From: Kaistia granuli DSM 23481
GTDB lineage: Bacteria; Pseudomonadota; Alphaproteobacteria; Rhizobiales; Kaistiaceae
Length of the DNA: 64,000 nt
Direction: 5' to 3'
Assembly (NCBI RefSeq): GCF_000380505.1
Contig: NZ_AQYH01000004.1
Location: forward strand, 124,001-188,000
The position numbers were made by a program, and so were the translations under genes. Positions 1,848 through 18,529 of the stretch are shown piece by piece. The notes below the pieces were generated by a model. It ran no database searches. It was not told the DNA's origin and worked only from the letters and a program-made list of their open reading frames with translations. Position 1 is the first letter of the stretch. Every line of letters starts with the position of its first letter.

Positions 1848-3128
1848 ATGCGCTCTCTAAAAGCACGGAATTGGGTATTCGCGGCGTCACTTGCCGCCCT
1901 TGGACTTTCCAGCAGCCTGGCGAATGCCGTCGAACTCAAGATATGGCATCACACCTATCCGCCGGCGGAAGAATTCATCAAGAAGAAGGCGGCTGAGTAC
2001 ACCAAGCTGCATCCGGACGTGACGTTCCAGTTCCAGTCCGATCCGCATGGCGACTATGAGGTCAAATTGCTGGCGGCCATCGCGGCCGGCGAAGCGCCGG
2101 ACCTGATCAACGTCCTCGACTATCTCTATCCGAAGTTCGTCAGCAAGGGCATTCTGGCCGAGGCCGACCTGCCCGCCATGGGCGTCAAGTCCAATGAGGA
2201 ACTCGAGGCGCTCTATTCGCCGGGCGCCCTCAAGGGCCTGATGATCGACAACAAGATCTATGGCCTTCCCGAAGAGCTGAACACCTTTGCCTTGTTCATG
2301 AACAAGGAACATTTCGCGGAAGCCGGCATCGATATCACCGACAAGGCCAACTGGCCGAAGACCTGGGACGATCTATTCGTTCTGGCCAAGAAGGTCCAGA
2401 AGAAGGACGAGGCCGGAAACTTCGAGCGCCTCGGGTTCAACTGGGTCTGGGGTCTCGACGGCTTCTGGTATGCGATGGAGTACTGGCCGATCCTGAACCA
2501 GTATGGTTGCAAGGTGCTCGATGACGCCGGCAAGGCGGCGATCAATTCGCCCGAATGCGTCGCCGCCTTCACCGACACCTGGCAGCGCGTCGTCACCGAC
2601 GGCATCGGCGGGCCGGACTACGCCACCGTCAATCCCGTCAATGCCCTGCAGGACTTCTCGGACGGCCGCCAGTCGATGATGATGGCCGGCATCTGGTCGC
2701 CGCCGCTGTTCGGCGAGGACGTCAAGCAGAACTACGTCGTCGCGCCGATCCCGCAGAAGGACCCGGCCAATCCGAAGACGCTGCTCTACAACTATTCGAT
2801 GACCGTCACGGCGGCCTCGAAGAACCAGCCGGAAGCCTGGAACTTCCTTCGCTTCCTGACCTCGGACGGCGACGGCTACTTGCGCAATACCGGCTATGTC
2901 ACGGGCCTGAAGGACTGGGAGAAGTCCGACGCCGCCAAGGACACGATCGGCGCTGAGATCTTCGCCGACCAGCTCCAGTACGGCTCGTACTACTGGCGCT
3001 CGCTGACCTGGAACGAAGAAGGCAAGGCGATCAAGGACGCCATCGAGCAATTCGCCCAGGGCACTTCGGTGCAGGAAGCGCTCGACCAGGCCGCCAAGCA
3101 GATCGATTTCGTTCGCAGTCAGCAGTAA
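1848..3128 (+). CDS. Sugar ABC transporter substrate-binding protein (CUT1, family 1)
   Basis: 426 residues. A Sec signal peptide is visible (basic start, hydrophobic core, likely cleavage after Ala27 in SLANA), so the protein is periplasmic. The mature part begins VELKIWHH and contains the family 1 binding-protein pattern (GEAPDLINV, GLPEELNTFALFMNKEHF), as in MalE/UgpB-type proteins. It is followed by two permease genes, making a CUT1 carbohydrate or polyol importer, but no ATPase gene is present. A strong stem-loop separates it from the permeases. A SorC-type regulator lies downstream, and an operon with a xylulokinase-like kinase and transketolase converges on it, so a pentose, pentitol or deoxy-sugar is a reasonable guess for the ligand; the sequence alone does not identify it. 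Confidence 0.9.
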   Translation: MRSLKARNWVFAASLAALGLSSSLANAVELKIWHHTYPPAEEFIKKKAAEYTKLHPDVTFQFQSDPHGDYEVKLLAAIAAGEAPDLINVLDYLYPKFVSKGILAEADLPAMGVKSNEELEALYSPGALKGLMIDNKIYGLPEELNTFALFMNKEHFAEAGIDITDKANWPKTWDDLFVLAKKVQKKDEAGNFERLGFNWVWGLDGFWYAMEYWPILNQYGCKVLDDAGKAAINSPECVAAFTDTWQRVVTDGIGGPDYATVNPVNALQDFSDGRQSMMMAGIWSPPLFGEDVKQNYVVAPIPQKDPANPKTLLYNYSMTVTAASKNQPEAWNFLRFLTSDGDGYLRNTGYVTGLKDWEKSDAAKDTIGAEIFADQLQYGSYYWRSLTWNEEGKAIKDAIEQFAQGTSVQEALDQAAKQIDFVRSQQ

Positions 3129-3143
3129 TTTCTATCGAGGCAG

Positions 3144-3175
3144 GCGCTCATCCGGCAGGATAGCCGGATGGGCGC
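3144..3175 (+). promoter_or_regulatory. Intercistronic stem-loop between binding protein and permease
   Basis: Arms 3144-3156 and 3163-3175 form a 13-bp stem (one G-U pair) with a six-base loop. No T-run follows, so it is less likely a terminator than an mRNA-stabilising or partial-attenuation structure that keeps the binding protein in excess over the permeases. Confidence 0.7.
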
Positions 3176-3201
3176 TCTATCTGTCGAGAAGGTACAGGCG
3201 C

Positions 3202-4065
3202 GTGGTAAAGTCGCGAAAGAACTGGGCGCTGATTTTCATCGCCCCCTCTCTGTTGTATTTAGCTCTTTTCCAGCTTTATCCCGTTCTATACGCCGTCTAT
3301 ATCAGCTTTCATAAATATGATCTGATGTCGCCGCCGCAGTTCGTCGGGATCTCCAACTACATCCGGTTGGCGTCGGACGAGCAGTTCCTGCGCTCCCTGT
3401 GGGTGACGGCGTTCTATGTCTTCTGGACGATCGTTCCGGTGATCGGGCTGTCGTTCATTCTGGGCGGCTTGCTGAGCACGCTCAACCGCAGCCGCGGCGT
3501 CTGGCGGGTCCTGCTCTATCTGCCCTCCATCCTGCCATTCGTCTCGGTCGCGCTGGTCTGGAAGATCATGTTCAATCAGCGCGGTCCGATCAACGACGCG
3601 CTCAACACGGTCGGCGTCGCGTCGATACCCTGGCTCACCAACAGCGCCTATGCGCCGTGGGCCCTGATCTTCATGAGTTGGTGGCATGCGACCAGCTACT
3701 ACACCATCATCTTCCTTGCCGGCTTCCTGACCTTGCCGCGCGACTGCTTCGAGGCGGCGCGGCTCGACGGGGCGGGGCTCCTGCAGACGATCCGCCACAT
3801 CACCATTCCGCTGATGAAGCCGACCATCGTCCTGGTCGTCGTGCTGGCGACCGTGAACGGCCTGAAGGCGTTCGTCTTCCAGCAGGTGCTGACCGATGGC
3901 GGCCCCGCCAACGCCACCCAGATCCTGACGATCCTGATCTACAAGACCGCGTTCAGCTATCTCGACATGGGGCGCGCGAGCACTTACTCGATCGTGCTGT
4001 TCGGCGGCATCATGGCGCTCGGGCTGATCCAGATCTGGCTGATTTCGGGGCGCCGCGATGCGTAA
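3202..4065 (+). CDS. Sugar ABC transporter permease (MalF/UgpA type)
   Basis: 287-residue inner-membrane protein with about six transmembrane segments. The cytoplasmic EAA loop that contacts the ATPase is visible as EAARLDGAGLLQTIRHITIP (about residues 187-206). The start is GTG at 3202 with a GAGAAGG Shine-Dalgarno at 3186-3192. It lies 73 bases after the binding-protein gene, and its stop overlaps the start of the second permease by 8 bases, so the two permeases are translationally coupled. The partner ATPase is missing from the locus and is presumably supplied by a shared MsiK/UgpC-type protein elsewhere. Confidence 0.92.
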   Translation: MVKSRKNWALIFIAPSLLYLALFQLYPVLYAVYISFHKYDLMSPPQFVGISNYIRLASDEQFLRSLWVTAFYVFWTIVPVIGLSFILGGLLSTLNRSRGVWRVLLYLPSILPFVSVALVWKIMFNQRGPINDALNTVGVASIPWLTNSAYAPWALIFMSWWHATSYYTIIFLAGFLTLPRDCFEAARLDGAGLLQTIRHITIPLMKPTIVLVVVLATVNGLKAFVFQQVLTDGGPANATQILTILIYKTAFSYLDMGRASTYSIVLFGGIMALGLIQIWLISGRRDA

Positions 4066-4879
4066 CGCCCGCACCGAACGCATCGCCGTCTTCGCCTTTC
4101 TGGCGATCTTCACGGCCATCGCCCTGTTTCCGATCGTCTGGATGCTCGGCGCTTCCTTCAAGACGGACAAGGAACTCCTCGACGGGTCGCTGTGGAGTTT
4201 CGGCAGCGCTGGCATCAGCAACTATGTGAAGGCCTTCAGCGCGCGGCCGTTCCTGCGCTACCTGTTGAACTCGTTGCTGGCGGCCGGCGTCTCCGTCGTC
4301 ATCACCGTCGTCCTCGGCGTGCTAGCCGGTTATGGCTTCGCCAAGCTCCGGAACCAGTACACCGAGATCATCTGGATCGTCGTCCTCGCCTCGATCATGA
4401 TTCCGATCGAGTCGATCGTCATCCCGCTGTTCCTGCAGGTCCACGCCTTCGGATGGCACGACACCTATGCCGGCATCATCCTGCCGACCGCGCTCAACGC
4501 CGCCGGCATCTTCATCCTGCGACAGGCGATCCAGTCGATCCCGAACGAATTGCTCGAGGCGGGCCGGATCGACGGCGCCAGCGAGTTCAGGATCCTGAGG
4601 CTGATCGTCGTTCCGCTGCTGGCGCCCAGCATCGTCGTCGTCTCGGTGCTGACGTTCAGCCTGAGCTGGAACAGCTATCTGTGGCCGCTGATCATCACCA
4701 GCACGGATTCACTGCGGACCCTGCCGCTCGGAATGGCGGCGTTCCAGATGACGCTCAACACGAAATACAGTGAGATCATGGCCGTATCGACCTTCGGAAC
4801 CATCCCGATGGCGATCCTGTTCGTCTCGCTGCAACGCTACTTCATCGACAGCGCGATCGGGTCGGGCATCAAGGGATGA
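4058..4879 (+). CDS. Sugar ABC transporter permease (MalG/UgpE type)
   Basis: 273 residues with six predicted transmembrane segments. The EAA loop is visible as EAGRIDGASEFRILRLIVVP (about residues 167-186). It forms the heterodimeric channel with the preceding permease, whose gene it overlaps (4058-4065). The C-terminal stretch (FIDSAIGSGIKG) ends as is usual for MalG-type subunits. 154 bases later comes a SorC-family regulator on the same strand, probably a later member or close neighbour of this transcription unit. Confidence 0.92.
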   Translation: MRNARTERIAVFAFLAIFTAIALFPIVWMLGASFKTDKELLDGSLWSFGSAGISNYVKAFSARPFLRYLLNSLLAAGVSVVITVVLGVLAGYGFAKLRNQYTEIIWIVVLASIMIPIESIVIPLFLQVHAFGWHDTYAGIILPTALNAAGIFILRQAIQSIPNELLEAGRIDGASEFRILRLIVVPLLAPSIVVVSVLTFSLSWNSYLWPLIITSTDSLRTLPLGMAAFQMTLNTKYSEIMAVSTFGTIPMAILFVSLQRYFIDSAIGSGIKG

Positions 4880-5033
4880 CCCTTCCGGGCGCGTGGGCGG
4901 AGGTTGCGAAAAAAGAGATGGCGGGGCGCAGTCGATGCAAGCGGCCGCCAGATTATCTGCTAGGAGCACGGGCTGGCGCGACAAGGCGCGGAAATCCTTG
5001 TCGCGCTTGAAATGGGTCAGTTGAGGAACGGAT

Positions 5034-5978
5034 ATGGCACGCCCGAAACCGGACGAAGAGACGCTGATCAACGTCGCCCGGCTGCGGTATGAAAACGGCA
5101 TCCCCCAGAACGAGATCGCGCGCAATCTCCAGATCTCCGAGGCGACCGTCAGCCGGTATCTCAAGCTGGCGATGGAACTGGGCATCGTCGAGATCCGGGT
5201 CGCGACGCGGGCCTTCCGGAACAAGCTTCTCGAAACCCAGCTGATGCAGCGCTTCAACCTGGTGTCCGCGATCGTCGTGGATCGGCGGTCCACCGACGTC
5301 AACACGGTGCAGTTGCTCGGCAACGCCGTGTTCCGCGGCATCGAGGATCTCGTGCTGAGCGACACGGTGATCGGCGTTTCCAATGGCGAGACAGTTGCCA
5401 GCGTCGCCGCCGCCGGCCGGCTGATCCGTGCCGACAATCTCTCCGTCGTGACGCTGATCGGCGGTGTCGGCCGAGCCGAGGAGGCGAGCCAGACCGGCGA
5501 AATCTGCCGCACGCTGGCGCGCCGGATCGGCGCCCGCGCCTGGGTCTTGCCGGTGCCGGCCGTCGTCGACACCGCCGAGGCGGCCGCCACGCTGCGTTCG
5601 ACCTCAGGCGTCAGCGACATCTTCGAACTGATCGGCCGCGTCTCGATCGCCATCGTCGGCATCGGTGCGATGACGGAAGGGTCCTCGACCTTTCGCCACG
5701 GTCTGTTTCCGTCGCACTATCTGCAGACGATCCTCGCCGCCGGAGCCGTCGGCTCGATGTGCGGGCGGTTCTACAACGCCGACGGCCAGGTGCTGCATTC
5801 GGATATCGAGGCGCGCACCCTGTCGCTGTCGCTGGATGCCCTTTCCAATGTCACGCACTGCATCGCCGTCGCGCTCGGGCCGGAAAAGGTTCCGGCCATT
5901 CGCGCCGCGATGCGCGGCCGCCTGATCAACGCGCTCGGCACCGACGCCGAGACGGCGGCGCTGCTCTGCGAGGGCTAG
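5034..5978 (+). CDS. SorC/DeoR-type sugar-binding transcriptional regulator
   Basis: 314 residues. An N-terminal helix-turn-helix (about residues 15-55, NGIPQNEIARNLQISEATVSRYL) is followed by the SorC sugar-phosphate-binding domain to the C-terminus (GVSNGETVASVAAA, SLSLDALSNVTHCIAVALGPEK). This family senses phosphorylated sugars or sugar acids and controls carbohydrate operons. The ATG has a GAGGAACGG Shine-Dalgarno. It follows the ABC transporter genes on the same strand and converges with the transketolase operon, so it likely controls one or both. A second SorC gene lies within that opposing operon (9792-10763), which suggests two effectors or cross-regulation. Confidence 0.88.
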   Translation: MARPKPDEETLINVARLRYENGIPQNEIARNLQISEATVSRYLKLAMELGIVEIRVATRAFRNKLLETQLMQRFNLVSAIVVDRRSTDVNTVQLLGNAVFRGIEDLVLSDTVIGVSNGETVASVAAAGRLIRADNLSVVTLIGGVGRAEEASQTGEICRTLARRIGARAWVLPVPAVVDTAEAAATLRSTSGVSDIFELIGRVSIAIVGIGAMTEGSSTFRHGLFPSHYLQTILAAGAVGSMCGRFYNADGQVLHSDIEARTLSLSLDALSNVTHCIAVALGPEKVPAIRAAMRGRLINALGTDAETAALLCEG

Positions 5979-6111: not shown

Positions 6112-8118
6112 TCAGTTGGTGGTTTCGAGCTTGGCCGCCTCGGTGAGGCGCAGGATCTCGCCGGAGATCGCCTCGGGCGTCAGGCCGAAATGTTCGTAGA
6201 CCGTCGGTCCCGGGGCCGAGAAGCCGAAGGTCGGAACGCCGAAAATGTGGTCCGAGCGACCGGTGAAGCGTTCCCAGCCGAACGGTGATGCCGCTTCGAT
6301 GGCGAAGCGCGGCGCGTTGCCAAGCACTTCCGCCCGGTAGCGCCCGTCCTGTTCGGCGAACCGCTCCCAGCACGGCATCGAGACGACAGCCGCGTCGATG
6401 CCATGGGTTGCGAGCAGTCGGCGGACGTCGATCGCGAGGCTGACCTCGGATCCGGATGCGAGCAGAGTGAGGTCGCGTCGCGCGCCGCCCGCCAGCACAT
6501 AGGCACCGCGGCGGGACAGCATCTCGTCCGTGGCCGTCAGGCGCACTTGCGGCACCTTCTGGCGCGCCGCGACCATGACGCTCGGGCCGATGCCGGCGAC
6601 CGCGTCGTACCAGCATTCGAGCGCCTCGACCGCGTCGGCCGGCCGATAGACCCGGAGGCCCGGGATCGTGCGCAGCGACGCCACATGCTCGATCGGCTGG
6701 TGGGTCGGGCCGTCCTCGCCGACGCCGATGGAATCATGCGTCATCAGGAAGATGTCGCGGATCCCCATCAGGGCGGCGAGGCGGATGGCGGGGCGGGCGT
6801 AGTCGCTGAAGGTCAGGTAGGTGCCGGCATAGGGCGTGAAGCCGCCATGCAGCGCGATGCCGTTCAACGCCGCCGCCATGCCGTGCTCGCGAATGCCGAA
6901 GCTGATGTGGCGGCCGGCGAAATTTTGCGGCGTCAGCGGTTCCATGCCCTTCGGCTTCGAAAGCACGCTGGAGGTCAGGTCGGCCGAGCCGCCGACCAGT
7001 TCCGGCATCACGGCCGAAAGGACTGCCGTGGCGTTCAGGCTGCCTTGGCGGACCGGGATCGCGGCGGGATTGGCGACGAGGGCGGAAAGCGCTGACTCGA
7101 CGGCTCCGCGCACATCCTCGCGCAGCTGGCCGGAGATGCGCCGTTCGAATTCGGATTTCGCCGGGCTGGCGGCGAGCCGCGCTTCCCAGGCCGCGCGGGC
7201 GTCGGTGCCGCGTCGGCCGGCCGATCTCCAGCTCGCCGCGATCGCATCCGGCACCTCGAAGGGCCCATGTGGCCAATCGAGCGCCTTGCGCATGGCGGCG
7301 ACTTCCTCGGCCCCGAGGGGCGAGCCATGGGCGATGGAGAGCCCCTGTTTCGTCGGCGCGCCAAAGCCGATGCGCGTGCGCGCCGCGATCAGGGTCGGCC
7401 GATCGGAGGCCCTGGCAGCGGTGAGCGCCGCGTCGATGGCGTTAATGTCATGGCCGTCGACGGCGATCGTGTTCCAACCGGACGCCTGGAAGCGACGGCA
7501 CTGGTCGTCGGAGGTGCTGACGCTGGTGGCGCCGTCAATCGTCGTGCTGTTGTCGTCGAAGACGATCGCGAGCTTGCCGAGCCCGAGATGGCCGGCGAGC
7601 GAGATCGCTTCCTGGCTGATACCTTCCATCAGGCAGCCGTCGCCGCAGAACACCCAGGTGCGGTGATCGACGAGATCGTCGCCGAACTCGGCGTTCAGCA
7701 TGCGTTCGGCCAGCGCCATGCCGACGGCGGTGGCGATGCCCTGGCCGAGCGGCCCCGTTGTCGTCTCGATCGCGGCGAAATGGCCGTATTCCGGGTGCCC
7801 GGCGGCGAGCGCCCCGGCCTTGCGGAATTTCTGCAGTTCCGCGAGCGGGACATCGGCGTGGCCGGTCAGGTGCAGCAGCCCGTAAAGCAGCATCGAGCCG
7901 TGGCCATTCGACAGCACGAAGCGATCGCGATCCGGCCAGCGCGGGTCTGAAGCGTCGAACCGCAGATGACGGCCGAACAAAGTGGTGGCGAGGTCCGCCA
8001 TGCCGAGCGGCATGCCCGGATGCCCGGTCCCCGCCTGTTCCACGGCATCGACGGCGAGGAACCGCAGAGCCGTTGCCATCTTTCCGAGATCGCCCTTGGA
8101 AGTCGTCACATCCACCAC
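6112..8118 (-). CDS. tkt: Transketolase
   Basis: 668 residues, the normal length for a full transketolase. Thiamine-diphosphate and substrate motifs are all present: GTGHPGMPLGMADL near residue 30, the cofactor/metal motif GDGCLMEGISQEA near residues 158-170, the catalytic-glutamate region IREHGMAAALNG and the DSIGVGEDGPTHQPIEH signature in the second domain. The cytosolic enzyme transfers two-carbon ketol units between ketose and aldose phosphates. It is the last gene of the minus-strand unit beginning at 14337 and lies 168 bases after the FGGY kinase. That gap contains an AT-rich stretch that may carry its own promoter. Its place in a dedicated catabolic operon suggests an inducible paralogue rather than the only housekeeping copy. 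Confidence 0.95.
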   Translation of the reverse strand: MVDVTTSKGDLGKMATALRFLAVDAVEQAGTGHPGMPLGMADLATTLFGRHLRFDASDPRWPDRDRFVLSNGHGSMLLYGLLHLTGHADVPLAELQKFRKAGALAAGHPEYGHFAAIETTTGPLGQGIATAVGMALAERMLNAEFGDDLVDHRTWVFCGDGCLMEGISQEAISLAGHLGLGKLAIVFDDNSTTIDGATSVSTSDDQCRRFQASGWNTIAVDGHDINAIDAALTAARASDRPTLIAARTRIGFGAPTKQGLSIAHGSPLGAEEVAAMRKALDWPHGPFEVPDAIAASWRSAGRRGTDARAAWEARLAASPAKSEFERRISGQLREDVRGAVESALSALVANPAAIPVRQGSLNATAVLSAVMPELVGGSADLTSSVLSKPKGMEPLTPQNFAGRHISFGIREHGMAAALNGIALHGGFTPYAGTYLTFSDYARPAIRLAALMGIRDIFLMTHDSIGVGEDGPTHQPIEHVASLRTIPGLRVYRPADAVEALECWYDAVAGIGPSVMVAARQKVPQVRLTATDEMLSRRGAYVLAGGARRDLTLLASGSEVSLAIDVRRLLATHGIDAAVVSMPCWERFAEQDGRYRAEVLGNAPRFAIEAASPFGWERFTGRSDHIFGVPTFGFSAPGPTVYEHFGLTPEAISGEILRLTEAAKLETTN

Positions 8119-8286
8119 GTCGCCGCTCCTATCTAGACCCCTTGATCGCTAGGGCATCCGGCGGATTAAAACAATTGATTTCTTTAGTGTAATTTATTCA
8201 TTTAAATGAGTGGCGCGCCGATCGTTGGAGGGGGCTACGTTCGATGGCAAGGCAGGATGCGACCGGCCGAGGGCCGGAGAGCGGTC
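8119..8286 (-). promoter_or_regulatory. AT-rich spacer upstream of transketolase with palindrome
   Basis: The spacer between the kinase stop and the transketolase start is AT-rich at 8165-8210. It contains a perfect 12-bp palindrome, TCATTTAAATGA, at 8198-8209. It could be an operator for one of the two SorC regulators or part of an internal promoter; no direct evidence decides this. Confidence 0.4.
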
Positions 8287-9765
8287 TCAGTCGCCGTTCG
8301 GGCGAGACAGGGATGCGTAGCTCGCGACGGCCGGGAACATCGCCTTGAACGTCTCGAAGCGATGCTGGTAGGCCTCGGCCTGCTCGGCCAGGGGGCGAAC
8401 CGCTTCGACCTTTTCCGGTGGCTTGGCGATCAAGGCGATGTCGACGCCGCTTTCGCCGATCATGGCGAGCCGGGCGGCACCCAGGGACGGGCCGAGATCG
8501 GCCTCGTCGTAGCGCGCGAGGTCGCGCCCCAGCAGCGTCGCCAGGATCCGGCACCAGAACAGGCTCTGCGCGCCGCCGCCGATCAGCCCGGGGACCGGGC
8601 AGGGGCTGCCGGCCTCGGTCAGGAGATCGTCGGCCTGGCGGATCGAAAAGGCGACGCCCTCGATCACCGCTTGCGCGATGTCGATCGGATCGGTCGCCGG
8701 GCTCAGTCCGAGAAACGCGCCGCGAAGATCGCCGTCGCCATGCGGGGTCCGTTCGCCGCTGAGATAGGGCAGGAACATCACAGATGACGGTCCGGCATAG
8801 CGGGCCTCGACCTTCGCCAGCAAGGCGCCGATATCGGCGGCGCCCGTCAGCTTGCTGGCCCAGGCCAGGGCGCTGGCGCCGTTCAGCATGGCCGCCATCT
8901 GGTACCAGCCGGGCGTGCAATGGGCGAAATTGTGCAGTACGAGGTCCGGCTTGGGCGCATAGCGGTCCTGCGCCACGAAATAGACCACGCCGGTGCCGAG
9001 CGAGATGAAGCCCGAGCCGGGTGCGGCGCAGCCGAGACCGATCGCCCCGGTTCCGACATCGGCGCCGCCGCAGGCGAGGGGTATGCCGGCGCGAAGGCCG
9101 AGCGCCCCGGCAATTGCCGGCCGCAGACGTCCGGCGATCTGGTAGCCCTCCATCAAAGGCGGCATCCAGCCGGGGTCTATGCCGAGCCCGTTCAGGATCG
9201 CCGGCGACCATTGCCGCCGCGCCTGATCAAACAGTTGCGTGCCGCCGGCGTCGGACATGTCGCTGGCGATCTCGCCGGTCAGCCACAGCCGCACATAGTC
9301 CTTCGCCAGCATCACATGGGCGATGCGGTCATAGTGCTTCGGCTCATTGTCGCGCATCCACAAGAGCTTCGCCGCGGTGAAGCTCGTCATCGGCACGACG
9401 CCGGAGATCTCCGCCAGGCCGGGCACGCGCGCGGCCATCGAGGTGCATTGCTCGGCACCGCGGCTATCGTTCCAGAGGATGGCCGGCCGGACGACCTGGT
9501 GATCGGCGTCGAGCGTGACCAGCGAATGCATCTGGCCCGAGAAACCGAGCGCGCGAACGGCGGCAAAGGCCTCCGGCTGGGCCTGGCGCAGCGAGGTCAG
9601 CACGGACTGCAGCGCTTCGATCCAGAGGGCCGGATCCTGCTCGCTGATGCCCGGCCCCGGGCGCGACGTTGCGTAGTCGCGGGTGGCGCGAGCCAGGGTC
9701 CGCTGGCTTTCGTCGACCAGGATAGCCTTGGTCGCCGTCGTTCCGACGTCGATCCCCAGATACAT
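8287..9765 (-). CDS. xylB: FGGY-family carbohydrate kinase, xylulokinase-like
   Basis: 492 residues; start chosen at the ATG of MYLGIDVGTTATKAILVDE because upstream in-frame codons lie inside the neighbouring regulator gene and a GGGGGCAAGG Shine-Dalgarno precedes it. The FGGY ATPase fold is clear: N-terminal phosphate-1 motif, GFSGQMHSLVTLD (xylulokinase-type substrate loop), AILWNDSRGAEQC and the C-terminal adenosine site LIGGGAQSLFWCRILATLL. It most resembles D-xylulose kinase, which makes xylulose 5-phosphate for transketolase. Enzymes of this type also accept other ketoses, including 1-deoxy-D-xylulose in Escherichia coli. It is 26 bases downstream of the SorC gene in the same unit. Confidence 0.88.
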   Translation of the reverse strand: MYLGIDVGTTATKAILVDESQRTLARATRDYATSRPGPGISEQDPALWIEALQSVLTSLRQAQPEAFAAVRALGFSGQMHSLVTLDADHQVVRPAILWNDSRGAEQCTSMAARVPGLAEISGVVPMTSFTAAKLLWMRDNEPKHYDRIAHVMLAKDYVRLWLTGEIASDMSDAGGTQLFDQARRQWSPAILNGLGIDPGWMPPLMEGYQIAGRLRPAIAGALGLRAGIPLACGGADVGTGAIGLGCAAPGSGFISLGTGVVYFVAQDRYAPKPDLVLHNFAHCTPGWYQMAAMLNGASALAWASKLTGAADIGALLAKVEARYAGPSSVMFLPYLSGERTPHGDGDLRGAFLGLSPATDPIDIAQAVIEGVAFSIRQADDLLTEAGSPCPVPGLIGGGAQSLFWCRILATLLGRDLARYDEADLGPSLGAARLAMIGESGVDIALIAKPPEKVEAVRPLAEQAEAYQHRFETFKAMFPAVASYASLSRPNGD

Positions 9766-9791
9766 CGCCTTGCCCCCGCTTGCGTCGTCCG

Positions 9792-10763
9792 TCAGCTTTC
9801 CAGGGCCAGCAGCGCCTTGGCGCCGGCCTCGTCCGTGATCAGAGTGTTGCAGCCAACCCGCTTCATCGTGGCGCGAATGGCGATGGCGCGGCTGGCGCCT
9901 CCGGTCGCCAGCACGACGTGCCGCGCCTTGCTGACCGCGTCGAGATCGATCGACATGACGCGGTCGTTCAAAGCGTGCTCGACCGTCCGGCCTTCCGCAT
10001 CCAGGAAATTGCACATCGCGTCGCCGACGCAGCCGGCCTCGACCAGTTCGTTCAGTTCCTGCGGCGAGATCAGGGTCTGCGACAGCGACGTGGCGGACGG
10101 ACTGATGTCGCCGACGCTGATCACCGCGATGTCGAGATCTTCGGCCAGCCGGTACAGGCGATCCAGGCCGCAGCGGTCGATCAGATGGCGCTTGGTCTCG
10201 ATCGAGTCGACCAGGAGCGGCGACAGGAAGAGGTAGCATTCGGCGCCGATCTGGCTGGCGAGCCGCCAGGAGAATTCGATCGGATTGGTAAGATGGGCCT
10301 CGAGCACGCCGCCAAGCAGCGAGACGACGCGCACGCGCTCGCGGCGGGCAGGGCGGAAGCTGGCGAGGGAGGCCGTCAGCGTGCGCCCCCAGCCGACGCC
10401 GATGGTGCAGTCATCGGTGATCGCCTCCGAGAGGAACTGGCCGAGCGCCAGTCCGACCGCCTTGGCGGTACCCTCCGTGTCGTCGGCGCCGGGCACGACG
10501 ATCGCCTCGTCGAGGCCGAAGGTTTTTTCGAGCTTCACGGCGAGCTCGACGCACTCGCCGATCCCCTCATTGATCCAGAGCTGGACCTCGCCGCGCTTCA
10601 CCGCCTCGTCGAGGGCGCGGATGATCGTCATCCGGCTGACGCCGAGCTTCTCGGCGACATCCTTCTGCGTCAGGCCCTGATTGTAGTAGAGCCACGCGGC
10701 GCGCAGCCGAAGCGACGACGTTTCGGAGAGGGCCTTCTGCGTGCCTCGTCTGAGCTTGACCAC
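9792..10763 (-). CDS. SorC/DeoR-type sugar-binding transcriptional regulator (second copy)
   Basis: 323 residues. The helix-turn-helix is at about residues 22-60 (YYNQGLTQKDVAEKLGVSRMTIIRAL), followed by a SorC effector domain (GVGWGRTLTASLASF, SIDLDAVSKARHVVLATGG). The C-terminal motif DLDAVSKARHVVLATGG parallels DALSNVTHCIAVALG of the first SorC gene at 5034, so the two are paralogues, but their helix-turn-helix regions differ and they should read different sites. It lies inside the operon between the hydrolase (36 bases) and the kinase (26 bases), and it probably autoregulates the unit in response to a phosphorylated intermediate. Confidence 0.9.
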   Translation of the reverse strand: MVKLRRGTQKALSETSSLRLRAAWLYYNQGLTQKDVAEKLGVSRMTIIRALDEAVKRGEVQLWINEGIGECVELAVKLEKTFGLDEAIVVPGADDTEGTAKAVGLALGQFLSEAITDDCTIGVGWGRTLTASLASFRPARRERVRVVSLLGGVLEAHLTNPIEFSWRLASQIGAECYLFLSPLLVDSIETKRHLIDRCGLDRLYRLAEDLDIAVISVGDISPSATSLSQTLISPQELNELVEAGCVGDAMCNFLDAEGRTVEHALNDRVMSIDLDAVSKARHVVLATGGASRAIAIRATMKRVGCNTLITDEAGAKALLALES

Positions 10764-10799
10764 GATATTCCTCAGTTTGGCGGCGAAGACCGCGCGGCG

Positions 10800-11588
10800 C
10801 TAGGCGTTGGCGGTCAGGAAGGACTGGATCCAGCCATTGACCGACTTGAAGTCCTCGATCTGCGGCATGTGGCCGGTCGCGGCGAGGACATGCTGTTCGC
10901 CGCCGAACCGGGCGAGCCGGTCGCGGTCGAGCGGATTGATGGTGTCCTGTTCGCCCCAAATCGTCAGGCGGGGCATGCCGCTCGCGACGATCGCCGCGAC
11001 GGTCGGCTGCAGGGCGTCGCCGAGACCCGGCAGGAGGGCGGCAATGGCCGTGATCGCCTCGCGCCGTCCCGGGCGACCGAGATGCGTCAGGACATGCGCC
11101 GCCATCGGCTTGTTGATCAGGCGCGGGCGCGCCACCAGCCTCTGCAGCAGGGCGAGCGCCGAGTCCGCATCGTTGAGCTTGCCAAAGCTGGCGGTGAAGT
11201 CCGGGTCGATGCCCTTGCCGAGGCCGGCTGGCGCGATCAGCACCAGCGAGCGCACGCGGTCGGGCGCCCGCTCGGCGAGCCGCAGCGCGACGGCGCCGCC
11301 CAGCGAATGCCCGACCAGATGTACGACGCCCTGGGTCCGCTCCGCCAGCCCGGCCAGCACCGCATCGACCAGGCCGTCCAGGCTGATGCTGGATGCCGGC
11401 TCCGCCTCGCCATGTCCCGGCAGATCAACGCCCCAGACCCGGAAGTCGGCGGCGAGTTGCGGCGCATTGGCCAGCCAGGAAAGGCGGTCCGCGCCGAAGC
11501 CGTGGATCAGCACGATTTCGGGCTGGCCGTCCTGCCCGCCCATCGCGTGGAAGGGCGCCGGAAGCGCGGCTGTCTTCGCCTCGGACAT
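10800..11588 (-). CDS. Alpha/beta-hydrolase, AcoC C-terminal-domain-like
   Basis: 262 residues; the ATG at 11588 follows the lipoyl gene by 11 bases, and the longer in-frame extension is spurious. Alpha/beta-hydrolase features are complete: oxyanion-hole HGFG (residues 29-32), nucleophile elbow GHSLGG with Ser95, acid Asp215 in GEQDTINP and base His240 in TGHMPQIED. In acetoin dehydrogenase clusters of Pseudomonas/Cupriavidus type, AcoC joins a lipoyl domain to just such a hydrolase fold. Here the two parts are separate adjacent genes. The role in acyl transfer or thioester hydrolysis is uncertain. No membrane segment or signal peptide is seen, so it is cytosolic. Confidence 0.82.
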   Translation of the reverse strand: MSEAKTAALPAPFHAMGGQDGQPEIVLIHGFGADRLSWLANAPQLAADFRVWGVDLPGHGEAEPASSISLDGLVDAVLAGLAERTQGVVHLVGHSLGGAVALRLAERAPDRVRSLVLIAPAGLGKGIDPDFTASFGKLNDADSALALLQRLVARPRLINKPMAAHVLTHLGRPGRREAITAIAALLPGLGDALQPTVAAIVASGMPRLTIWGEQDTINPLDRDRLARFGGEQHVLAATGHMPQIEDFKSVNGWIQSFLTANA

Positions 11589-11599
11589 GGCGCTGTCGC

Positions 11600-11839
11600 T
11601 CACTCGGTCGCGATGATGGCGAGCGTCGTGCCGATCTCGGCGAGGTCGCCTTCCGGCACGACGATCTGCTTCAGGACGCCGGTCGCGGGCGCCTCGATCT
11701 CCATGCTGAGCTTGGTCGTCGTGACGACGAGGATCTGTTCGCCCTCGGTGACGGCGTCCCCCTCGCTCTTCAGCCATTCCGTCAGTTCGGCCTCGGTCGT
11801 CTCGTTGCCCAATTGCGGCATCAGCAGCGGAATATCCAT
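11600..11839 (-). CDS. Stand-alone lipoyl-domain protein (split E2)
   Basis: 79 residues, just one biotinyl/lipoyl domain. It runs from MDIPLLMPQLG through the hairpin TTTKLSMEIEAPATG, where Lys43 is the expected lipoylation site, to the closing strand. The usual DK of ETDKA is replaced by TK, as seen in some acetoin-dehydrogenase-type lipoyl domains. A GAGAGGAAA Shine-Dalgarno selects this ATG. It lies 38 bases after the E1 gene and 11 before the hydrolase gene. There is no E2 acyltransferase core or peripheral-subunit-binding domain anywhere in the window, so it presumably works as the swinging arm of E1 and borrows lipoamide dehydrogenase from elsewhere. A biotin carrier is less likely because no carboxylase is nearby. 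Confidence 0.85.
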   Translation of the reverse strand: MDIPLLMPQLGNETTEAELTEWLKSEGDAVTEGEQILVVTTTKLSMEIEAPATGVLKQIVVPEGDLAEIGTTLAIIATE

Positions 11840-11877
11840 CGTTTCCTCTCGGTATTTCTTGTCGAAGGCGCAGGAGC

Positions 11878-14337
<2,460 letters not shown>

Positions 14338-14568
14338 GCTTTCCTCCATCGGCCATCGCCGGCAACCCGCCCTCGAAGCCCCGGCGGTGGCGATGCTGTC
14401 CTCGGGCTTCGGCACGTCACTATTGCGTCGCTGTTACATATGTCAACTCGAATTTGCAAAAGTTGGGATGGCGGTATTCACCGACCTCGACCGCAGAGGC
14501 GCCGACCGGGTGGAACCGCACGCCCGCGGCATGCGTTGATCCCCCGTTCCACGACATGGAGGTGCGAC

Positions 14569-15120: not shown

Positions 15121-15942
15121 ATGGCGCCCCGCTCGTTCTGGAAGGGCTATCTGAAGCTATCGCTGGTCACCTGTCCGGTGGCGATGGTGCCGGCGACGAC
15201 GGATAACGAGAAACTTCGATTCCACACGCTGAACCGCGCCACGGGAAACCGCGTCGTCAGCCAGTATGTCGATCTGGAGACGGGCGAGGCCGTCGAGGAC
15301 GACGATCAGGTCAAGGGCTACGAGCGCGGCGAGGACGAGTATCTGATGCTGGAGGACGACGAGATCGCCTCGGTCGCCCTCGAAAGTACCCGCACCATCG
15401 ACATCGAAAGCTTCGTGCCGAGCGATGCCATCGACTGGATCTGGTACGACAAGCCGCATTATCTCGTGCCCGACGATCCGGTCGGCGAGGAGGCGTTTTC
15501 CGTCATTCGCGACGCCATGGCCGCGACCGGCACGGTCGGCATTTCGCGGCTGGTGCTCTACCGGCGCGAACGCGCGGTGATGCTGAAGCCGCGCGACGCC
15601 GGCATTGAGCTCTGGACGCTGCATTTCGGCGACGAGATCCGCGAGGAGGGCGCCTATTTCGAGGGCATCGAAGCGTCGAAGCCGGATCCGAAGCTGATGC
15701 AGATGATGCAGACCTTGATCCAGGAACGGACCAAGGCGTGGTCGCCGGCGCTCGTCAGCGATCCCGTGCAGGACAAGCTGCTGGAAATCATCGCCGCGAA
15801 GAAGAAGGGCAGGAAGCCGGCAACTGCCAAGGCTCAGCCGAAATCGGAGGGCAATGTCGTCAGTATCCTCGACGCGTTGAAGCGGAGCCTGGCGGCGGAC
15901 GGCAAGTCCGGCGGCAAGGCTGGCCCCTCCAAGGGCAAGTAG
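15121..15942 (+). CDS. ku: Ku protein (non-homologous end joining), paralogue 1
   Basis: 273 residues, the usual size for a bacterial Ku homodimer subunit. It begins with the conserved SFWKGYLKLSLVTCPVAM and contains FHTLNRATGNRV, QVKGYERGEDEY and the core YDKPHYLVPDD. The C-terminal 40 residues are a basic Lys/Ala tail (KKKGRKPATAK, SGGKAGPSKGK) of the type that recruits LigD. Ku binds double-strand DNA ends. The gene is convergent with ligD, their stops 1 base apart, and a second ku lies beyond ligD. The GAGGGTG Shine-Dalgarno supports the ATG. Confidence 0.95.
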   Translation: MAPRSFWKGYLKLSLVTCPVAMVPATTDNEKLRFHTLNRATGNRVVSQYVDLETGEAVEDDDQVKGYERGEDEYLMLEDDEIASVALESTRTIDIESFVPSDAIDWIWYDKPHYLVPDDPVGEEAFSVIRDAMAATGTVGISRLVLYRRERAVMLKPRDAGIELWTLHFGDEIREEGAYFEGIEASKPDPKLMQMMQTLIQERTKAWSPALVSDPVQDKLLEIIAAKKKGRKPATAKAQPKSEGNVVSILDALKRSLAADGKSGGKAGPSKGK

Positions 15943-15943
15943 A

Positions 15944-18529
15944 TCAGGCTTTCTTCGACGGCTTGCCATCCTGCAGCGGCGCCGCCGCCTTGCGAAAATC
16001 GGCCCAGGGATCGGCGCGGAGCGCGGCAAGCCGGGTCGGCATGTTGAGCACGGTGAAATAGGCGGGGCCGATTCCGGGTGTCAGTTCGTCCCAGGCGAGC
16101 GGGGCGGAGACCGGGGCGCCCGGCCGCGCGCGGGTCGAATAGGGGGCGACGGCCGTCTGGCCGCGCTGGTTGCGCAGATAGTCGATCAGGATCTTGCCCG
16201 GCCGTTTCGCCTTGGCGATCGTCGCGACATAGGCGTCGGGACTGTCGGCCGCCATGGCGTCGGCGATCCCCTTGGTGAACGCCTTGATCGCCGGCCACTC
16301 GGCCTTGGGCTTCAGCGGCGCGACGACATGCAAACCTTTGCCGCCGGACGTTTTGACGAAGGGCTCGAGCCCGGCATCGGCGAGACGCTGGCGAACCTCC
16401 TGGGCGGCGGCGATGACCGCTTCCCAGCCCGTGCCCTCGCCGGGGTCGAGGTCGAGGATGATCATGTCCGGTCGTTCCCATTCGGCGAGCGTCGAGCCCC
16501 AGGGATGGATCTCCAGCACGGCCGATTGAACCAGGGCAATCAGCCCGTCGAGATCCGCGATGCTGATCAATTGCTCGACTTCGGCCGTCGAGGGATCGTC
16601 GACCAGCCGGATCGCCGCGTTCAGGCCTTTCCAGGCGTTCTTCTGGAAGAACTGTTCGCCGCCGATCCCGCTCGGGCAGCGCAGCAGGGACAGCGGACGA
16701 TCGGTGACGAAGGGTGCGATATGCGGCCAGACTTCGGCATAATAGTCGGCAAGGCCCTCCTTGGTGACGCCGTTATCCGGCCAGTAGATGCGGTCGGGGT
16801 GGGTCAGCTTGATGCCGTGATGCGGCACCTCGGCGGTGGTCTCCGCCTTCGCCTTGCCCGTCTCGACCATGCTCGGCTCCTCCCGGATGATTTCTTCGGC
16901 CGCCTTGTCCTCGCGCAGGCCACGGAACGCCGCGTGGCGCAGATGGCCGTCCGCTGTCCAGGCCCGGTACTCGACTTCGGCCACCAGTTCGGGTCGCACG
17001 AAGCGGACCTGCCGGCCTTCTTCCGCCGTCAGCGGCCGTCCGAACGGATTGGCCGTGACCCGCATGCGCTCCAGCCGCTGGTAGAGATCCTCGGCCAGGC
17101 GCGCGCTGAAGCCGGTGCCGACGCGGCCGACAGGCTGCAACGCGCCCCTCTCGTACACGCCCAGCACCAGCGAGCCGATGGCGCGCCGCGACGTCGTCGA
17201 GGGAACATAGCCGCCGATGACGAATTCCTGCCGACTTGAACTCTTCACCTTGAGCCAGCTCTTGCCGCGGCCGGAACGGTAGGGCGAATCCAGAACCTTG
17301 GAGACGATGCCCTCGAGGCCTAGCCGGCTCGCATGGCGAAAGACCTCCGCGCCGTCTTCCTCGAAATGCTGGCTGAAGCGAAGGAGTGATGCGCCCTGCG
17401 CGATCAGTGGCGCGAGGGCTTGCTTGCGCTCGGAGAGCGGCACCTCGCGAAGGTCATAGCCGTCGAGATGGAGGAGGTCGAAGGTGTAGAAGACGAAGCG
17501 ATCGGAACGGCCTTCGCTCAGATCCGCCTGCAGAGCGGAAAAATCGGACACCCCGCCCGTCGTCTCGACCACCAGTTCCCCGTCGATCAGCGCGGTTCCG
17601 ACGGGCAGCGCCTGCAGCGCGGCGACGATCTCCTTGCCGAATTTCTTGGTCCAGTCGAGACCCGTGCGGGTCGAGAGCTTGACCCGCCCCGCGCTCAGAT
17701 GCGCCTGCAAGCGATAGCCGTCGAATTTGATCTCGTGGATCCAGCGCTCGCCCGATGGCGGGGTCGCCGCCAGCGAGGCCAAGGCGGGCTCGACGAAGGC
17801 CGGCAGCGCGGCCTTCTTCGCGCCGACAATCGTCGCCGGATCGGGCAGGGCAGGGGCAGGCTCTGCCGCTTCCTCGTCCCTCTCGGCGCGGGGCTTCTTC
17901 TTCGCTGATTTCTCGATCTTGCCTGTCTTCGACGACCAGCCCGGCTCTTCGCCGGCGACATCGGCGATGGCGCGTCCGGTCTTCACCGAATCGGGCGATT
18001 CCTCAAGGATGTCCGGCGCACCAGCGGGCCGCGCCTCCTCGTCCTCCGCCTTGATGAGCAACCAGTTCTCGCGCTTCTCGCGCGGCTTGCCCTGCATTTT
18101 CACAAGGTGCCAGCGGCCGCGCAGCTTTTCGCCTTTCAGTTCGAATTCCAGATGGCCCTTGGCATAACCCTTGTGCGGATCGCCGACGGGTTCCCAGCTG
18201 CCGCGATCCCAGAGGATCACGGTGCCGCCGCCATATTCGCCCTTCGGGATGGTGCCTTCGAAGCCGCCATATTCGAGCGGATGGTCCTCGACATGCACGG
18301 CGAGCCGCTTCTCGGCCGGATCGAGGCTCGGCCCACGCGTCACCGCCCAGCTCTTCAGGACGCCGTCCATCTCGAGCCGGAAGTCGTAGTGCAGTCGGGT
18401 CGCATCATGCTTCTGGATGACGAAGCTGTGGCCGGCCTTGGCCTTGGCTTTCGAGGGCTTGCGGCCGGCCGGTTCGGGCGTCGACTTGAAATCGCGCTTG
18501 CTGCGATAGGTTTCGAGCGTCGCGGCCAT
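15944..18529 (-). CDS. ligD: LigD, multifunctional end-joining DNA ligase
   Basis: 861 residues with three domains in the order phosphoesterase, ligase, polymerase. The N-terminal 3-prime phosphoesterase (about 10-190) shows FVIQKHDATRLHYDFRLEMDG. After a charged linker, the ATP-dependent ligase domain has the adenylated Lys268 in HEIKFDGYR and the OB-fold GYVPSTTSRRAIGSLVLG. The C-terminal primase-polymerase (about 570-855) has LTHPDRIYWPDNGVTK, SLLRCPSGIGGEQFFQK and the metal-binding IILDLDPGEG. It processes and seals broken ends held by Ku. The second ku gene is 40 bases upstream on the same strand, so ku2-ligD is an operon. Confidence 0.97.
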   Translation of the reverse strand: MAATLETYRSKRDFKSTPEPAGRKPSKAKAKAGHSFVIQKHDATRLHYDFRLEMDGVLKSWAVTRGPSLDPAEKRLAVHVEDHPLEYGGFEGTIPKGEYGGGTVILWDRGSWEPVGDPHKGYAKGHLEFELKGEKLRGRWHLVKMQGKPREKRENWLLIKAEDEEARPAGAPDILEESPDSVKTGRAIADVAGEEPGWSSKTGKIEKSAKKKPRAERDEEAAEPAPALPDPATIVGAKKAALPAFVEPALASLAATPPSGERWIHEIKFDGYRLQAHLSAGRVKLSTRTGLDWTKKFGKEIVAALQALPVGTALIDGELVVETTGGVSDFSALQADLSEGRSDRFVFYTFDLLHLDGYDLREVPLSERKQALAPLIAQGASLLRFSQHFEEDGAEVFRHASRLGLEGIVSKVLDSPYRSGRGKSWLKVKSSSRQEFVIGGYVPSTTSRRAIGSLVLGVYERGALQPVGRVGTGFSARLAEDLYQRLERMRVTANPFGRPLTAEEGRQVRFVRPELVAEVEYRAWTADGHLRHAAFRGLREDKAAEEIIREEPSMVETGKAKAETTAEVPHHGIKLTHPDRIYWPDNGVTKEGLADYYAEVWPHIAPFVTDRPLSLLRCPSGIGGEQFFQKNAWKGLNAAIRLVDDPSTAEVEQLISIADLDGLIALVQSAVLEIHPWGSTLAEWERPDMIILDLDPGEGTGWEAVIAAAQEVRQRLADAGLEPFVKTSGGKGLHVVAPLKPKAEWPAIKAFTKGIADAMAADSPDAYVATIAKAKRPGKILIDYLRNQRGQTAVAPYSTRARPGAPVSAPLAWDELTPGIGPAYFTVLNMPTRLAALRADPWADFRKAAAPLQDGKPSKKA

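What the first reader, a model, noticed from the sequence alone, without database searches (positions are those of the whole stretch)
6112..14337. Possible new ketose/deoxy-ketose catabolic operon built on an acetoin-dehydrogenase-like complex
One tight minus-strand unit encodes a fused E1 alpha/beta thiamine-diphosphate enzyme, a bare lipoyl protein, an AcoC-like alpha/beta-hydrolase, a SorC sugar-phosphate regulator, a xylulokinase-like FGGY kinase and a transketolase. Acetoin dehydrogenases cleave CH3-CO-CHOH compounds to acetyl-CoA plus an aldehyde. A 1-deoxy-ketose such as 1-deoxyxylulose has exactly that group, and XylB of Escherichia coli is known to phosphorylate it. Kinase plus complex would then yield acetyl-CoA and glyceraldehyde 3-phosphate, formally the reverse of DXP synthesis. 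The seen part is the gene set and order; the substrate is inference.
Basis: partly seen in the sequence, partly recalled or inferred. Interest (0 to 1): 0.8.

Follow-up and report, generated by a model that had tools for sequence, protein, structure and literature searches.

The report
Kinase-coupled sugar-cleaving dehydrogenase complex
A soil bacterium carries an operon in which a pyruvate-dehydrogenase-like enzyme complex is tied to its own special sugar kinase and sugar-phosphate sensor, so it probably splits a phosphorylated sugar into an acyl-CoA and a smaller sugar phosphate; which sugar it uses is still unknown.

Summary
The gene set is real. Five genes (fused E1 alpha/beta, lipoyl protein, AcoC-like hydrolase-fold protein, SorC regulator, FGGY kinase) lie 11-38 bp apart; the transketolase follows after 168 bp. 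In 34 alpha/gammaproteobacterial E1 loci with 6 kb on both sides: lipoyl gene 33, hydrolase 31, SorC 24, a sugar kinase 21 (about 2 expected), transketolase 1, the window itself. Fourteen xylulokinase-like proteins (11 distinct) from E1-carrying genomes form one clade apart from ordinary XylB of relatives and E. coli; nine other FGGY genes near E1 loci fall outside it. Starting from the kinase, 8 of 8 relatives with that clade have the E1, 7 within about 2.1 kb. The E1 is a separate, long-stemmed family, not AcoAB; in other phyla it comes with a classical E2 (19 of 26 loci). So this looks like a CoA-forming, lipoyl-dependent ThDP complex coupled to ketose phosphorylation, most likely cleaving C2-C3 of a ketose phosphate. 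The transketolase is peripheral. No description was found in the library searched.

The parts
11878..14337 (-). Fused E1 alpha/beta, ThDP-dependent dehydrogenase, 819 aa, own family
   Evidence: Pfam E1_dh, Transket_pyr, Transketolase_C; own clade 100/100; catalytic motifs kept; AlphaFold model pLDDT 83.9, pTM 0.87, best PDB matches PDH and BCKDH E1 beta chains
11600..11839 (-). Bare lipoyl-carrier protein, 79 aa
   Evidence: Biotin_lipoyl 70.8 bits; Lys43 in 72 of 72 aligned lipoyl domains, E2 and AcoC ones included
10800..11588 (-). AcoC-like alpha/beta-hydrolase-fold protein, putative acyltransferase of the complex
   Evidence: NF011457 201 bits over positions 128-370; Ser95, Asp215, His240 conserved in 52/52, 51/51, 51/51, five AcoC proteins included
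9792..10763 (-). SorC-type regulator (SorC1)
   Evidence: Sugar-bind PF04198 192 bits; relative of 58% or more in 17 plasmid records, 16 of them with the E1
8287..9765 (-). FGGY kinase of the E1-linked clade (xylulokinase-like)
   Evidence: TIGR01312 489 bits; clade of 14 rows, 98/100 and 100/100; signature W49 to I/L, G79 to S, P130 to A/G (E. coli numbering)
6112..8118 (-). Transketolase; variable accessory
   Evidence: TIGR00232 725 bits; 1 of 34 full loci; a different transketolase (47% identical) upstream of the SBP gene in two relatives
14419..14446 (-). Sigma-70-like promoter match upstream of E1
   Evidence: TTGACA-16-AATAGT, 10 of 12; 1 found in the region against 1.0 expected in shuffles, so weak
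8119..8286 (-). 168-bp gap between kinase and transketolase
   Evidence: sequence; no terminator- or promoter-like match inside it
5034..5978 (+). Second SorC-type regulator (SorC2), convergent
   Evidence: Sugar-bind 214 bits; 85-86% identical copy at the same place in K. defluvii and G473
4058..4879 (+). Sugar ABC permease 2
   Evidence: BPD_transp_1; syntenic in two relatives
3202..4065 (+). Sugar ABC permease 1
   Evidence: BPD_transp_1; syntenic in two relatives
1848..3128 (+). Sugar-binding protein
   Evidence: SBP_bac_1 132 bits; nearest solved relative 4qrz, an ABC sugar-binding protein

Best explanation
A sugar or polyol is taken up (neighbouring ABC operon), brought to the ketose level, and phosphorylated at its far end by a kinase (FGGY here, PfkB in many relatives). 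The fused E1 attacks the ketose-phosphate carbonyl with ThDP, as transketolase does, and breaks C2-C3, releasing an aldose phosphate (glyceraldehyde 3-phosphate from C5, erythrose 4-phosphate from C6). Unlike transketolase it oxidises the two-carbon ThDP adduct on the lipoyl protein; the AcoC-like protein passes the acyl group to CoA; the cell's lipoamide dehydrogenase regenerates the lipoyl group and yields NADH. SorC1 senses a sugar phosphate. Shown: gene set, conservation, kinase-E1 co-occurrence, intact catalytic residues, separate E1 family. Inferred: reaction order, substrate, acyl product, regulator ligand. If C1 is CH3 the product is acetyl-CoA; if CH2OH, glycoloyl-CoA.
For: Lipoyl and hydrolase genes beside the E1 in 33 and 31 of 34 loci, a sugar kinase within 6 kb in 21 of 34; expectation about 0.065 per locus from 12 FGGY and 14 PfkB matches in 4.77 Mb of the own genome, i.e. 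about 2 of 34. Fourteen XylB-like proteins of E1-carrying genomes are one clade (kept with nine more FGGY rows added); 12 of the 14 rows lie within about 2.4 kb of the E1, one (Agrobacterium) 9 kb away, one (G481) on another contig. Kinase-first: 8 of 61 relatives carry that clade and 8 of 8 have the E1, 7 within about 2.1 kb; G481 has lipoyl and hydrolase genes beside the kinase instead. Twelve relatives have only the ordinary XylB type at that threshold; 3 of these have the E1, each time on another contig. In plasmids the 5 records with the best kinase matches (437-487 bits) all hold the E1; none of the other 55 listed does (60 of 63 listed). SorC-first: 16 of 17 records. Acyl-CoA and redox chemistry: the 26 loci of other phyla have a classical E2 in 19 and E3 in 13; lipA in pAt15955, LplA and a radical-SAM gene in L072, LplA in L077. 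FGGY and fructokinase families phosphorylate ketoses (general knowledge). Transaldolase in 4 of 34 loci and transketolase in the window fit PPP products. Precedent in the reverse direction: PMC3424233.
Against: 13 of 34 loci have no kinase within 6 kb; 11 of these 13 have SorC. Nine FGGY genes 1.8-7.6 kb from E1 loci (for example L033, L042, L043) are of other FGGY types, 24-36% identical to the window's. E1-linked PfkB proteins are not one clade (3 changes). Some loci carry fuconolactonase-like and GMC genes, which suggest oxidised sugars, or a RhaD-like aldolase/SDR fusion (L077). No substrate is known for any member. The kinase could serve a parallel step rather than precede the E1. No E3 within 6 kb in the window.
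Confidence: 0.55

Rival explanations
1. One reading: the substrate is a 1-deoxyketose (1-deoxyxylulose or 1-deoxyfructose type), phosphorylated and then cleaved to acetyl-CoA plus glyceraldehyde 3-phosphate or erythrose 4-phosphate. (Sub-case of the best explanation.)
For: AcoC-like acyltransferase with the same Ser-Asp-His as five AcoC proteins; PDH and, by a cited title, acetoin dehydrogenase make 1-deoxyketoses, and XylB phosphorylates 1-deoxyxylulose (PMC3424233); the kinase is XylB-like but a separate clade with G79 to Ser beside the Met77-His78 pair (the role of that pair is recalled).
Against: No gene that would make a 1-deoxyketose was recognised nearby; aldose-ketose isomerisation cannot give a CH3 at C1; natural sources of such sugars are scarce (general knowledge); E1 is not of the AcoAB clade; Tyr496 (nearly invariant) stands where AcoAB and the own PDH have Met or Leu, and invariant Tyr552 where AcoAB have Phe (own PDH Thr), which may mean a more polar ligand.
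Confidence: 0.25
2. Ordinary ketose phosphate (xylulose-, ribulose-, fructose-type) is cleaved as by transketolase, and the dihydroxyethyl adduct is oxidised to glycoloyl-CoA. (Other sub-case of the best explanation.)
For: The pRL8 locus holds a sugar ABC importer, an RbsD/FucU-like gene, a xylose-isomerase-like TIM barrel protein and a PfkB kinase whose best model is fructokinase (136 bits, below cut-off 450) beside the E1; CIAT894 has the same isomerase-like gene and kinase. SDR, AKR and zinc alcohol dehydrogenases are among the commonest enzyme families in the flanks (4, 4 and 3 of 91 proteins). Tyr496 and Tyr552 as above.
Against: No glycolate- or glyoxylate-pathway family among the 25 commonest families of 91 flanking proteins (85 families matched, 60 not shown). 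A route that drains xylulose 5-phosphate would need no special kinase clade. No precedent found.
Confidence: 0.25
3. The E1 acts on an unphosphorylated acetoin-like or diketone compound, and kinase, SorC and transketolase belong to a neighbouring sugar pathway.
For: The hydrolase is closest to the acetoin E2 model; 13 of 34 loci lack a kinase nearby; the transketolase is not conserved.
Against: E1 lies outside the AcoAB clade; no sigma-54 regulator or NAD-kinase-like gene as seen beside AcoABC in two plasmids; kinase clade co-occurs with the E1.
Confidence: 0.15
4. A 2-oxo-acid dehydrogenase for a sugar-derived 2-keto acid (decarboxylating).
For: E1 fold and motifs, QHSQ and GHS histidines kept; lactonase-like and GMC genes in one Rhodobacteraceae subgroup.
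Against: The Tyr of the own PDH's YRxHG motif (by hand alignment Tyr102 alpha of PMC2663715, section 6) is His in this family, as in the AcoA and other non-PDH references shown; FGGY kinases of this type act on ketoses, not keto acids (general knowledge).
Confidence: 0.15
5. An autoinducer-2 (DPD) degradation locus: FGGY = LsrK, SorC = LsrR, E1 complex in place of LsrF.
For: LsrR and LsrK models match weakly.
Against: LsrK model 94 bits against cut-off 528, LsrR 126 against 486; no LsrG or LsrF among the genes identified in the window set, though they were not searched for by name; the kinase is in the XylB family.
Confidence: 0.03

Closest known systems
Acetoin dehydrogenase enzyme system (AcoABC + E3)
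   Same: ThDP E1, lipoyl carrier, alpha/beta-hydrolase-fold E2 with the same Ser-Asp-His; cleaves a C-C bond next to a carbonyl and makes acyl-CoA (known for the family).
   Different: E1 alpha and beta fused and in a separate long-stemmed clade; E2 split in two genes; no sigma-54 regulator or NAD-kinase-like gene (AcoR, AcoX by recall); sugar kinase and SorC instead.
2-oxo acid dehydrogenase complexes (PDH, BCKDH)
   Same: Domain order and catalytic motifs of E1; relatives in other phyla have a classical E2 and often E3.
   Different: Two insertions in the alpha half, His for the Tyr of the own PDH's YRxHG motif, Tyr496 and Tyr552; sugar-gene context.
Xylulokinase XylB
   Same: Over the TIGR01312 cut-off; 42% identical to E. 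coli XylB.
   Different: Separate clade that goes with the E1; changes at W49, G79, A80, P130.
Transketolase, phosphoketolase and apulose-4-phosphate transketolase (recalled)
   Same: ThDP cleavage of C2-C3 in a ketose phosphate.
   Different: Here the two-carbon unit would be oxidised on lipoate and leave as a CoA ester.
DXP synthase
   Same: The proposed 1-deoxy version is formally its oxidative reverse.
   Different: Not a DXS by sequence (TIGR00204 61 bits against cut-off 466).

Membership tests
Acetoin dehydrogenase system | E1 subunits in the AcoAB clade | tested here: not met
   26 fused E1 rows form one clade 100/100, five AcoAB rows another
Acetoin dehydrogenase system | AcoC: lipoyl domain and hydrolase-fold acyltransferase in one chain | tested here: not met
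   Both parts present but as two genes; hydrolase matches NF011457 128-370 only, 201 bits, below cut-off 307; triad kept
Acetoin dehydrogenase system | Sigma-54 regulator (AcoR) and NAD-kinase-like gene (AcoX) beside AcoABC (names recalled) | tested here: not met
   Present in Mycetohabitans and Caballeronia loci, not among the genes of this operon
Acetoin dehydrogenase system | Cleaves acetoin to acetyl-CoA and acetaldehyde | not testable with these tools
   needs enzyme assay
2-oxo acid dehydrogenase complex | E1 domains and ThDP/His catalytic motifs | tested here: met
   Pfam, alignment, PDB fold search
2-oxo acid dehydrogenase complex | Classical E2 catalytic domain in the operon | tested here: not met
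   none within 6 kb in the window; present in 19 of 26 loci of other phyla
2-oxo acid dehydrogenase complex | Decarboxylates a 2-oxo acid | not testable with these tools
   needs enzyme assay
Xylulokinase XylB | Scores over the curated XylB cut-off | tested here: met
   TIGR01312 489.3 against 380.25
Xylulokinase XylB | Groups with XylB of known function | tested here: not met
   Clade of 14 (98/100; 100/100) excludes E. coli XylB and the own genome's other XylB
Xylulokinase XylB | Phosphorylates D-xylulose | not testable with these tools
   needs enzyme assay
Transketolase | Curated transketolase model | tested here: met
   TIGR00232 724.9 against 682.25
Lsr (AI-2) system | LsrK and LsrR models | tested here: not met
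   94 against 528 and 126 against 486 bits

The most novel reading that the evidence does not exclude
A widespread, undescribed enzyme class: a lipoyl- and CoA-dependent ketose-phosphate cleaving complex ('oxidative transketolase' or, in its 1-deoxy form, the catabolic reverse of DXP synthesis), fed by a ketose kinase that is often encoded beside it, in Proteobacteria with a split AcoC-type E2 and in Clostridia, Spirochaetes, Chloroflexi and others with a classical E2 and often E3.
Probability: 0.45. Interest if true: 0.85.

Novelty: new variant of a known kind. Interest (0 to 1): 0.6.

Why it matters
Lipoyl-linked E1 complexes are known for 2-oxo acids and acetoin. One that goes together with a dedicated sugar kinase would join sugar phosphate cleavage directly to acyl-CoA formation and bypass lower glycolysis. 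It would add a reaction to central carbon metabolism, explain a block of genes annotated only as 'alpha-ketoacid dehydrogenase subunit alpha/beta' (on conjugative plasmids of Rhizobium and Agrobacterium among others), and it is directly testable with a handful of phosphorylated ketoses. The kinase clade gives a handle on the substrate.

Tried and rejected
Considered and rejected: AI-2 locus (family scores far below cut-offs); the E1 as an AcoAB or as the PDH of this genome (the PDH is at another place); the transketolase as a core part. Left open: SorC relatives as PPP regulators (copies beside tal in Rhizobium CIAT894 and a few genes from a transketolase-like ORF in Shinella PSBB067; too few, and the latter is the one of 17 SorC records without the E1).

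Led nowhere: substrate from the sugar-binding protein (one search gives only general sugar binders); substrate from flanking enzymes (several different dehydrogenases, no common one); Rfam and tRNA scans (no match); literature searches for the gene set (no description seen in the listings; two searches returned no paper); xylose isomerase family in the own genome: nothing over cut-off. The PfkB clade test did not give a single clade.

Rows dropped before counts: loci L001-L013 were not used for the neighbourhood counts (short flanks; genomes largely the same as later loci). Loci without 6 kb on both sides of the E1 were left out of the '34' (21 of 55 alpha/gamma loci); counts for the 26 loci of other phyla use all 26, 18 of them with shorter flanks. 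L071 was dropped from the structure alignment because its frame holds a stop. The kinase tree took 14 rows chosen for 47% identity or more to the window's kinase (three pairs are identical sequences reached by two routes); nine other FGGY genes near E1 loci were left out there and added, where they fell outside the clade. Of 127 flanking proteins selected, 91 went.
Full report
What is there. The window lies in a Kaistia-like genome (nearest named E1 relatives: K. defluvii 91%, K. hirudinis 88%). On the minus strand, from 14337 down to 8287, five genes follow each other with gaps of 38, 11, 36 and 26 bp: a fused E1 alpha/beta, a 79-aa lipoyl protein, an alpha/beta-hydrolase-fold protein, a SorC-type regulator and an FGGY kinase. 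A transketolase gene follows after 168 bp. A sigma-70-like match sits at 14446-14419, but one such match is expected by chance in the region. From the other side a sugar ABC operon and a second SorC gene (1848-5978, plus strand) run towards the unit.

Is the unit conserved? A scan of one genome for each of 84,980 species kept the best 80 of 502 E1 relatives; with the window, 81 loci were examined. Fifty-five are alpha/gamma-type (E1 60% identical or more), of which 34 have more than 6 kb on both sides. Within 6 kb of the E1 in these 34: lipoyl gene 33, hydrolase 31, SorC 24, PfkB kinase 17, FGGY kinase 6, either kinase 21 (two have both), transaldolase 4, transketolase 1 (the window itself). 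In a set with no two E1s 90% or more identical (27 loci; the window is represented by K. defluvii): 26, 24, 20, kinase 15, transketolase 0. The own genome has 12 FGGY and 14 PfkB matches in 4.77 Mb, so about 0.065 kinases are expected per 12 kb, about 2 in 34. Thirteen of 34 have no kinase nearby; 11 of those have SorC. The other 26 loci (Clostridia, Spirochaetes, Chloroflexi, Planctomycetes and others; only 8 with full flanks) carry a classical E2 in 19, DeoR in 15, E3 in 13, and the models for the stand-alone lipoyl, hydrolase and SorC genes found none there. The E1 is sparse: 11 of 297 genomes of the order, the own one included.

Kinase and E1 go together. Fourteen XylB-like proteins (11 distinct, chosen for 47% identity or more) from E1-carrying genomes form one clade, support 98/100, apart from 15 ordinary XylB proteins of relatives (the own genome's second copy included) and from E. 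coli XylB. Twelve of the 14 rows lie within about 2.4 kb of the E1; the Agrobacterium row is 9 kb away and the G481 row on another contig. When nine further FGGY genes found 1.8-7.6 kb from E1 loci (24-36% identical) are added, the clade of 14 stands (100/100) and the nine fall outside it; so not every FGGY gene near this E1 is of the clade. Clade-specific changes in E. coli numbering: W49 to Ile/Leu, G79 to Ser (14 of 14), A80 mostly to Leu, P130 to Ala/Gly. Starting from the kinase instead: in 61 relatives eight genomes hold a member of 54% identity or more; all eight hold the E1, seven within about 2.1 kb; in the eighth (G481) the kinase contig carries lipoyl and hydrolase genes and the E1 with SorC is on another contig. 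Twelve relatives hold only the ordinary type at that threshold; three of these have the E1, each on another contig than the XylB (G261, G471, G483). Among plasmids, the five best kinase records (437-487 bits) all hold the E1 and none of the other 55 listed records does (63 matched, 60 listed). SorC relatives of 58% or more occur in 17 plasmid records, 16 with the E1; the next best is 42% (40 of 51 listed). The E1-linked PfkB proteins are best matched by a fructokinase model below its cut-off and are not a single clade; two of their E1-free relatives lie beside pgi in Sinorhizobium and near a mannitol dehydrogenase gene in Bartonella, which fits a ketohexose kinase.

What the E1 is. Twenty-six fused E1 rows form one clade (100/100) on a stem of 3.6 changes per site; five AcoAB rows form another; the own PDH and a second, unrelated fused E1 of this genome lie outside. 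In identity the window's E1 is hardly nearer to AcoAB than to the own PDH: 38-41% against 37% in the beta half, 27-31% against 29% in the alpha half. Catalytic motifs are kept (GE at 497-498, QHSQ 595-598, GHS 342-344, HRSHG 108-112). Peculiar features: an insertion before the AHLS motif and about 45 extra residues near 120-165; nearly invariant Tyr496 where AcoAB and the own PDH have Met or Leu; invariant Tyr552 where AcoAB have Phe, the own PDH Thr and one reference (Streptomyces) also Tyr; His where the own PDH has the Tyr that by hand alignment corresponds to Tyr102 alpha of PMC2663715 (section 6 read), as in the other references shown. The AlphaFold model (pLDDT 83.9, pTM 0.87) has PDH and BCKDH E1 beta chains as best PDB matches; over the whole chain 2-oxoadipate and 2-oxoglutarate E1s and human transketolase follow. 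The lipoyl lysine is kept in 72 of 72 aligned lipoyl domains and the Ser-Asp-His of the hydrolase-fold protein in 52/52, 51/51, 51/51, five AcoC proteins included. Lipoate genes sit beside some copies: lipA in pAt15955, LplA and a radical-SAM gene in L072, LplA in L077.

Mechanism. By its parts the complex is a lipoyl-dependent acyl-CoA former (no assay), tied to phosphorylation of a ketose. The kinases concerned phosphorylate the far end of a D-ketose (known for the families). ThDP attack on the carbonyl and C2-C3 cleavage would give glyceraldehyde 3-phosphate from a C5 and erythrose 4-phosphate from a C6 ketose; the second would need transaldolase or transketolase, and such genes turn up in some loci (transaldolase 4 of 34; transketolase in the window; a different one, 47% identical, directly upstream of the SBP operon in K. 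defluvii and, with a second FGGY gene between, in G473). The acyl part decides between acetyl-CoA (1-deoxyketose) and glycoloyl-CoA (ordinary ketose). For the first speak the AcoC-like acyltransferase and precedents: PDH makes 1-deoxyxylulose, XylB phosphorylates it, a cited 1986 title reports 1-deoxyketoses from PDH and acetoin dehydrogenase, and aceE mutants of E. coli raise DXP (PMC3424233; passages and Discussion read; the 1986 and 2001 papers seen only as cited titles). For the second speak the RbsD/FucU-like and xylose-isomerase-like genes of the pRL8 locus (isomerase-like gene also in CIAT894), since an aldose-ketose isomerase always leaves CH2OH at C1, and perhaps the two tyrosines. 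I hold the class of reaction likely (0.55) and the two versions about equal (0.25 each). Specific evidence for 1-deoxyxylulose was not found.

What is known. In the held library no paper listed appears to describe this set (listings seen, four papers opened). R. johnstonii pRL8 carries a copy; the rhizosphere paper PMC3333776 calls pRL8 pea-rhizosphere specific but the passages seen do not mention an E1, lipoyl or kinase gene of this kind, and the passages of PMC11103875 do not either. Most subscription journals are not in the library, so prior description elsewhere cannot be excluded.

Noticed in passing
window 15121-15942 (+) and 15944-18529 (-): Convergent Ku and LigD genes (non-homologous end joining) close to the E1 start (Pfam).
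   Followed up: no
L132 2806-5361 (own genome, contig C1): A second, unrelated fused E1 alpha/beta with a C-terminal lipoyl domain in one 851-aa chain; a near-identical relative in G473 (L178).
   Followed up: partly
L077 3146-14005; L072 4374-13770: In Clostridiales DTU089 the E2-E3-E1 set is flanked by a relative of an IolM-like zinc dehydrogenase, a RhaD-like aldolase/SDR fusion, LplA and an unassigned 434-aa protein with PHP-like motifs (by eye); in Limnochordia LplA and a radical-SAM gene precede E2.
   Followed up: partly
L103 18580-19551: A lipoyl synthase gene of its own lies next after the SorC gene of the E1 set, on the other strand, on Agrobacterium plasmid pAt15955.
   Followed up: no
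L184 3517-7006 (G473); L066 20550-22457 (K. defluvii): An extra transketolase (47% to the window's), in G473 followed by a second FGGY kinase (36%), precedes the sugar-binding protein gene; in the window an ABC-2 type exporter gene is there instead.
   Followed up: partly
L187 and L186 (G481): Split arrangement: lipoyl, hydrolase and kinase genes on one contig, E1 and SorC on another.
   Followed up: no
L104 14001-16462 and 17672-19137: In Rhizobium sp. RCAM05350 both the E1 and the kinase are annotated as two pieces each; decay or sequencing errors.
   Followed up: no
L181 4764-10699 (Phaeobacter inhibens plasmid): Another E1 alpha, beta, bare lipoyl protein, small E2 and GMC oxidoreductase cluster, of a different E1 lineage.
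   Followed up: no
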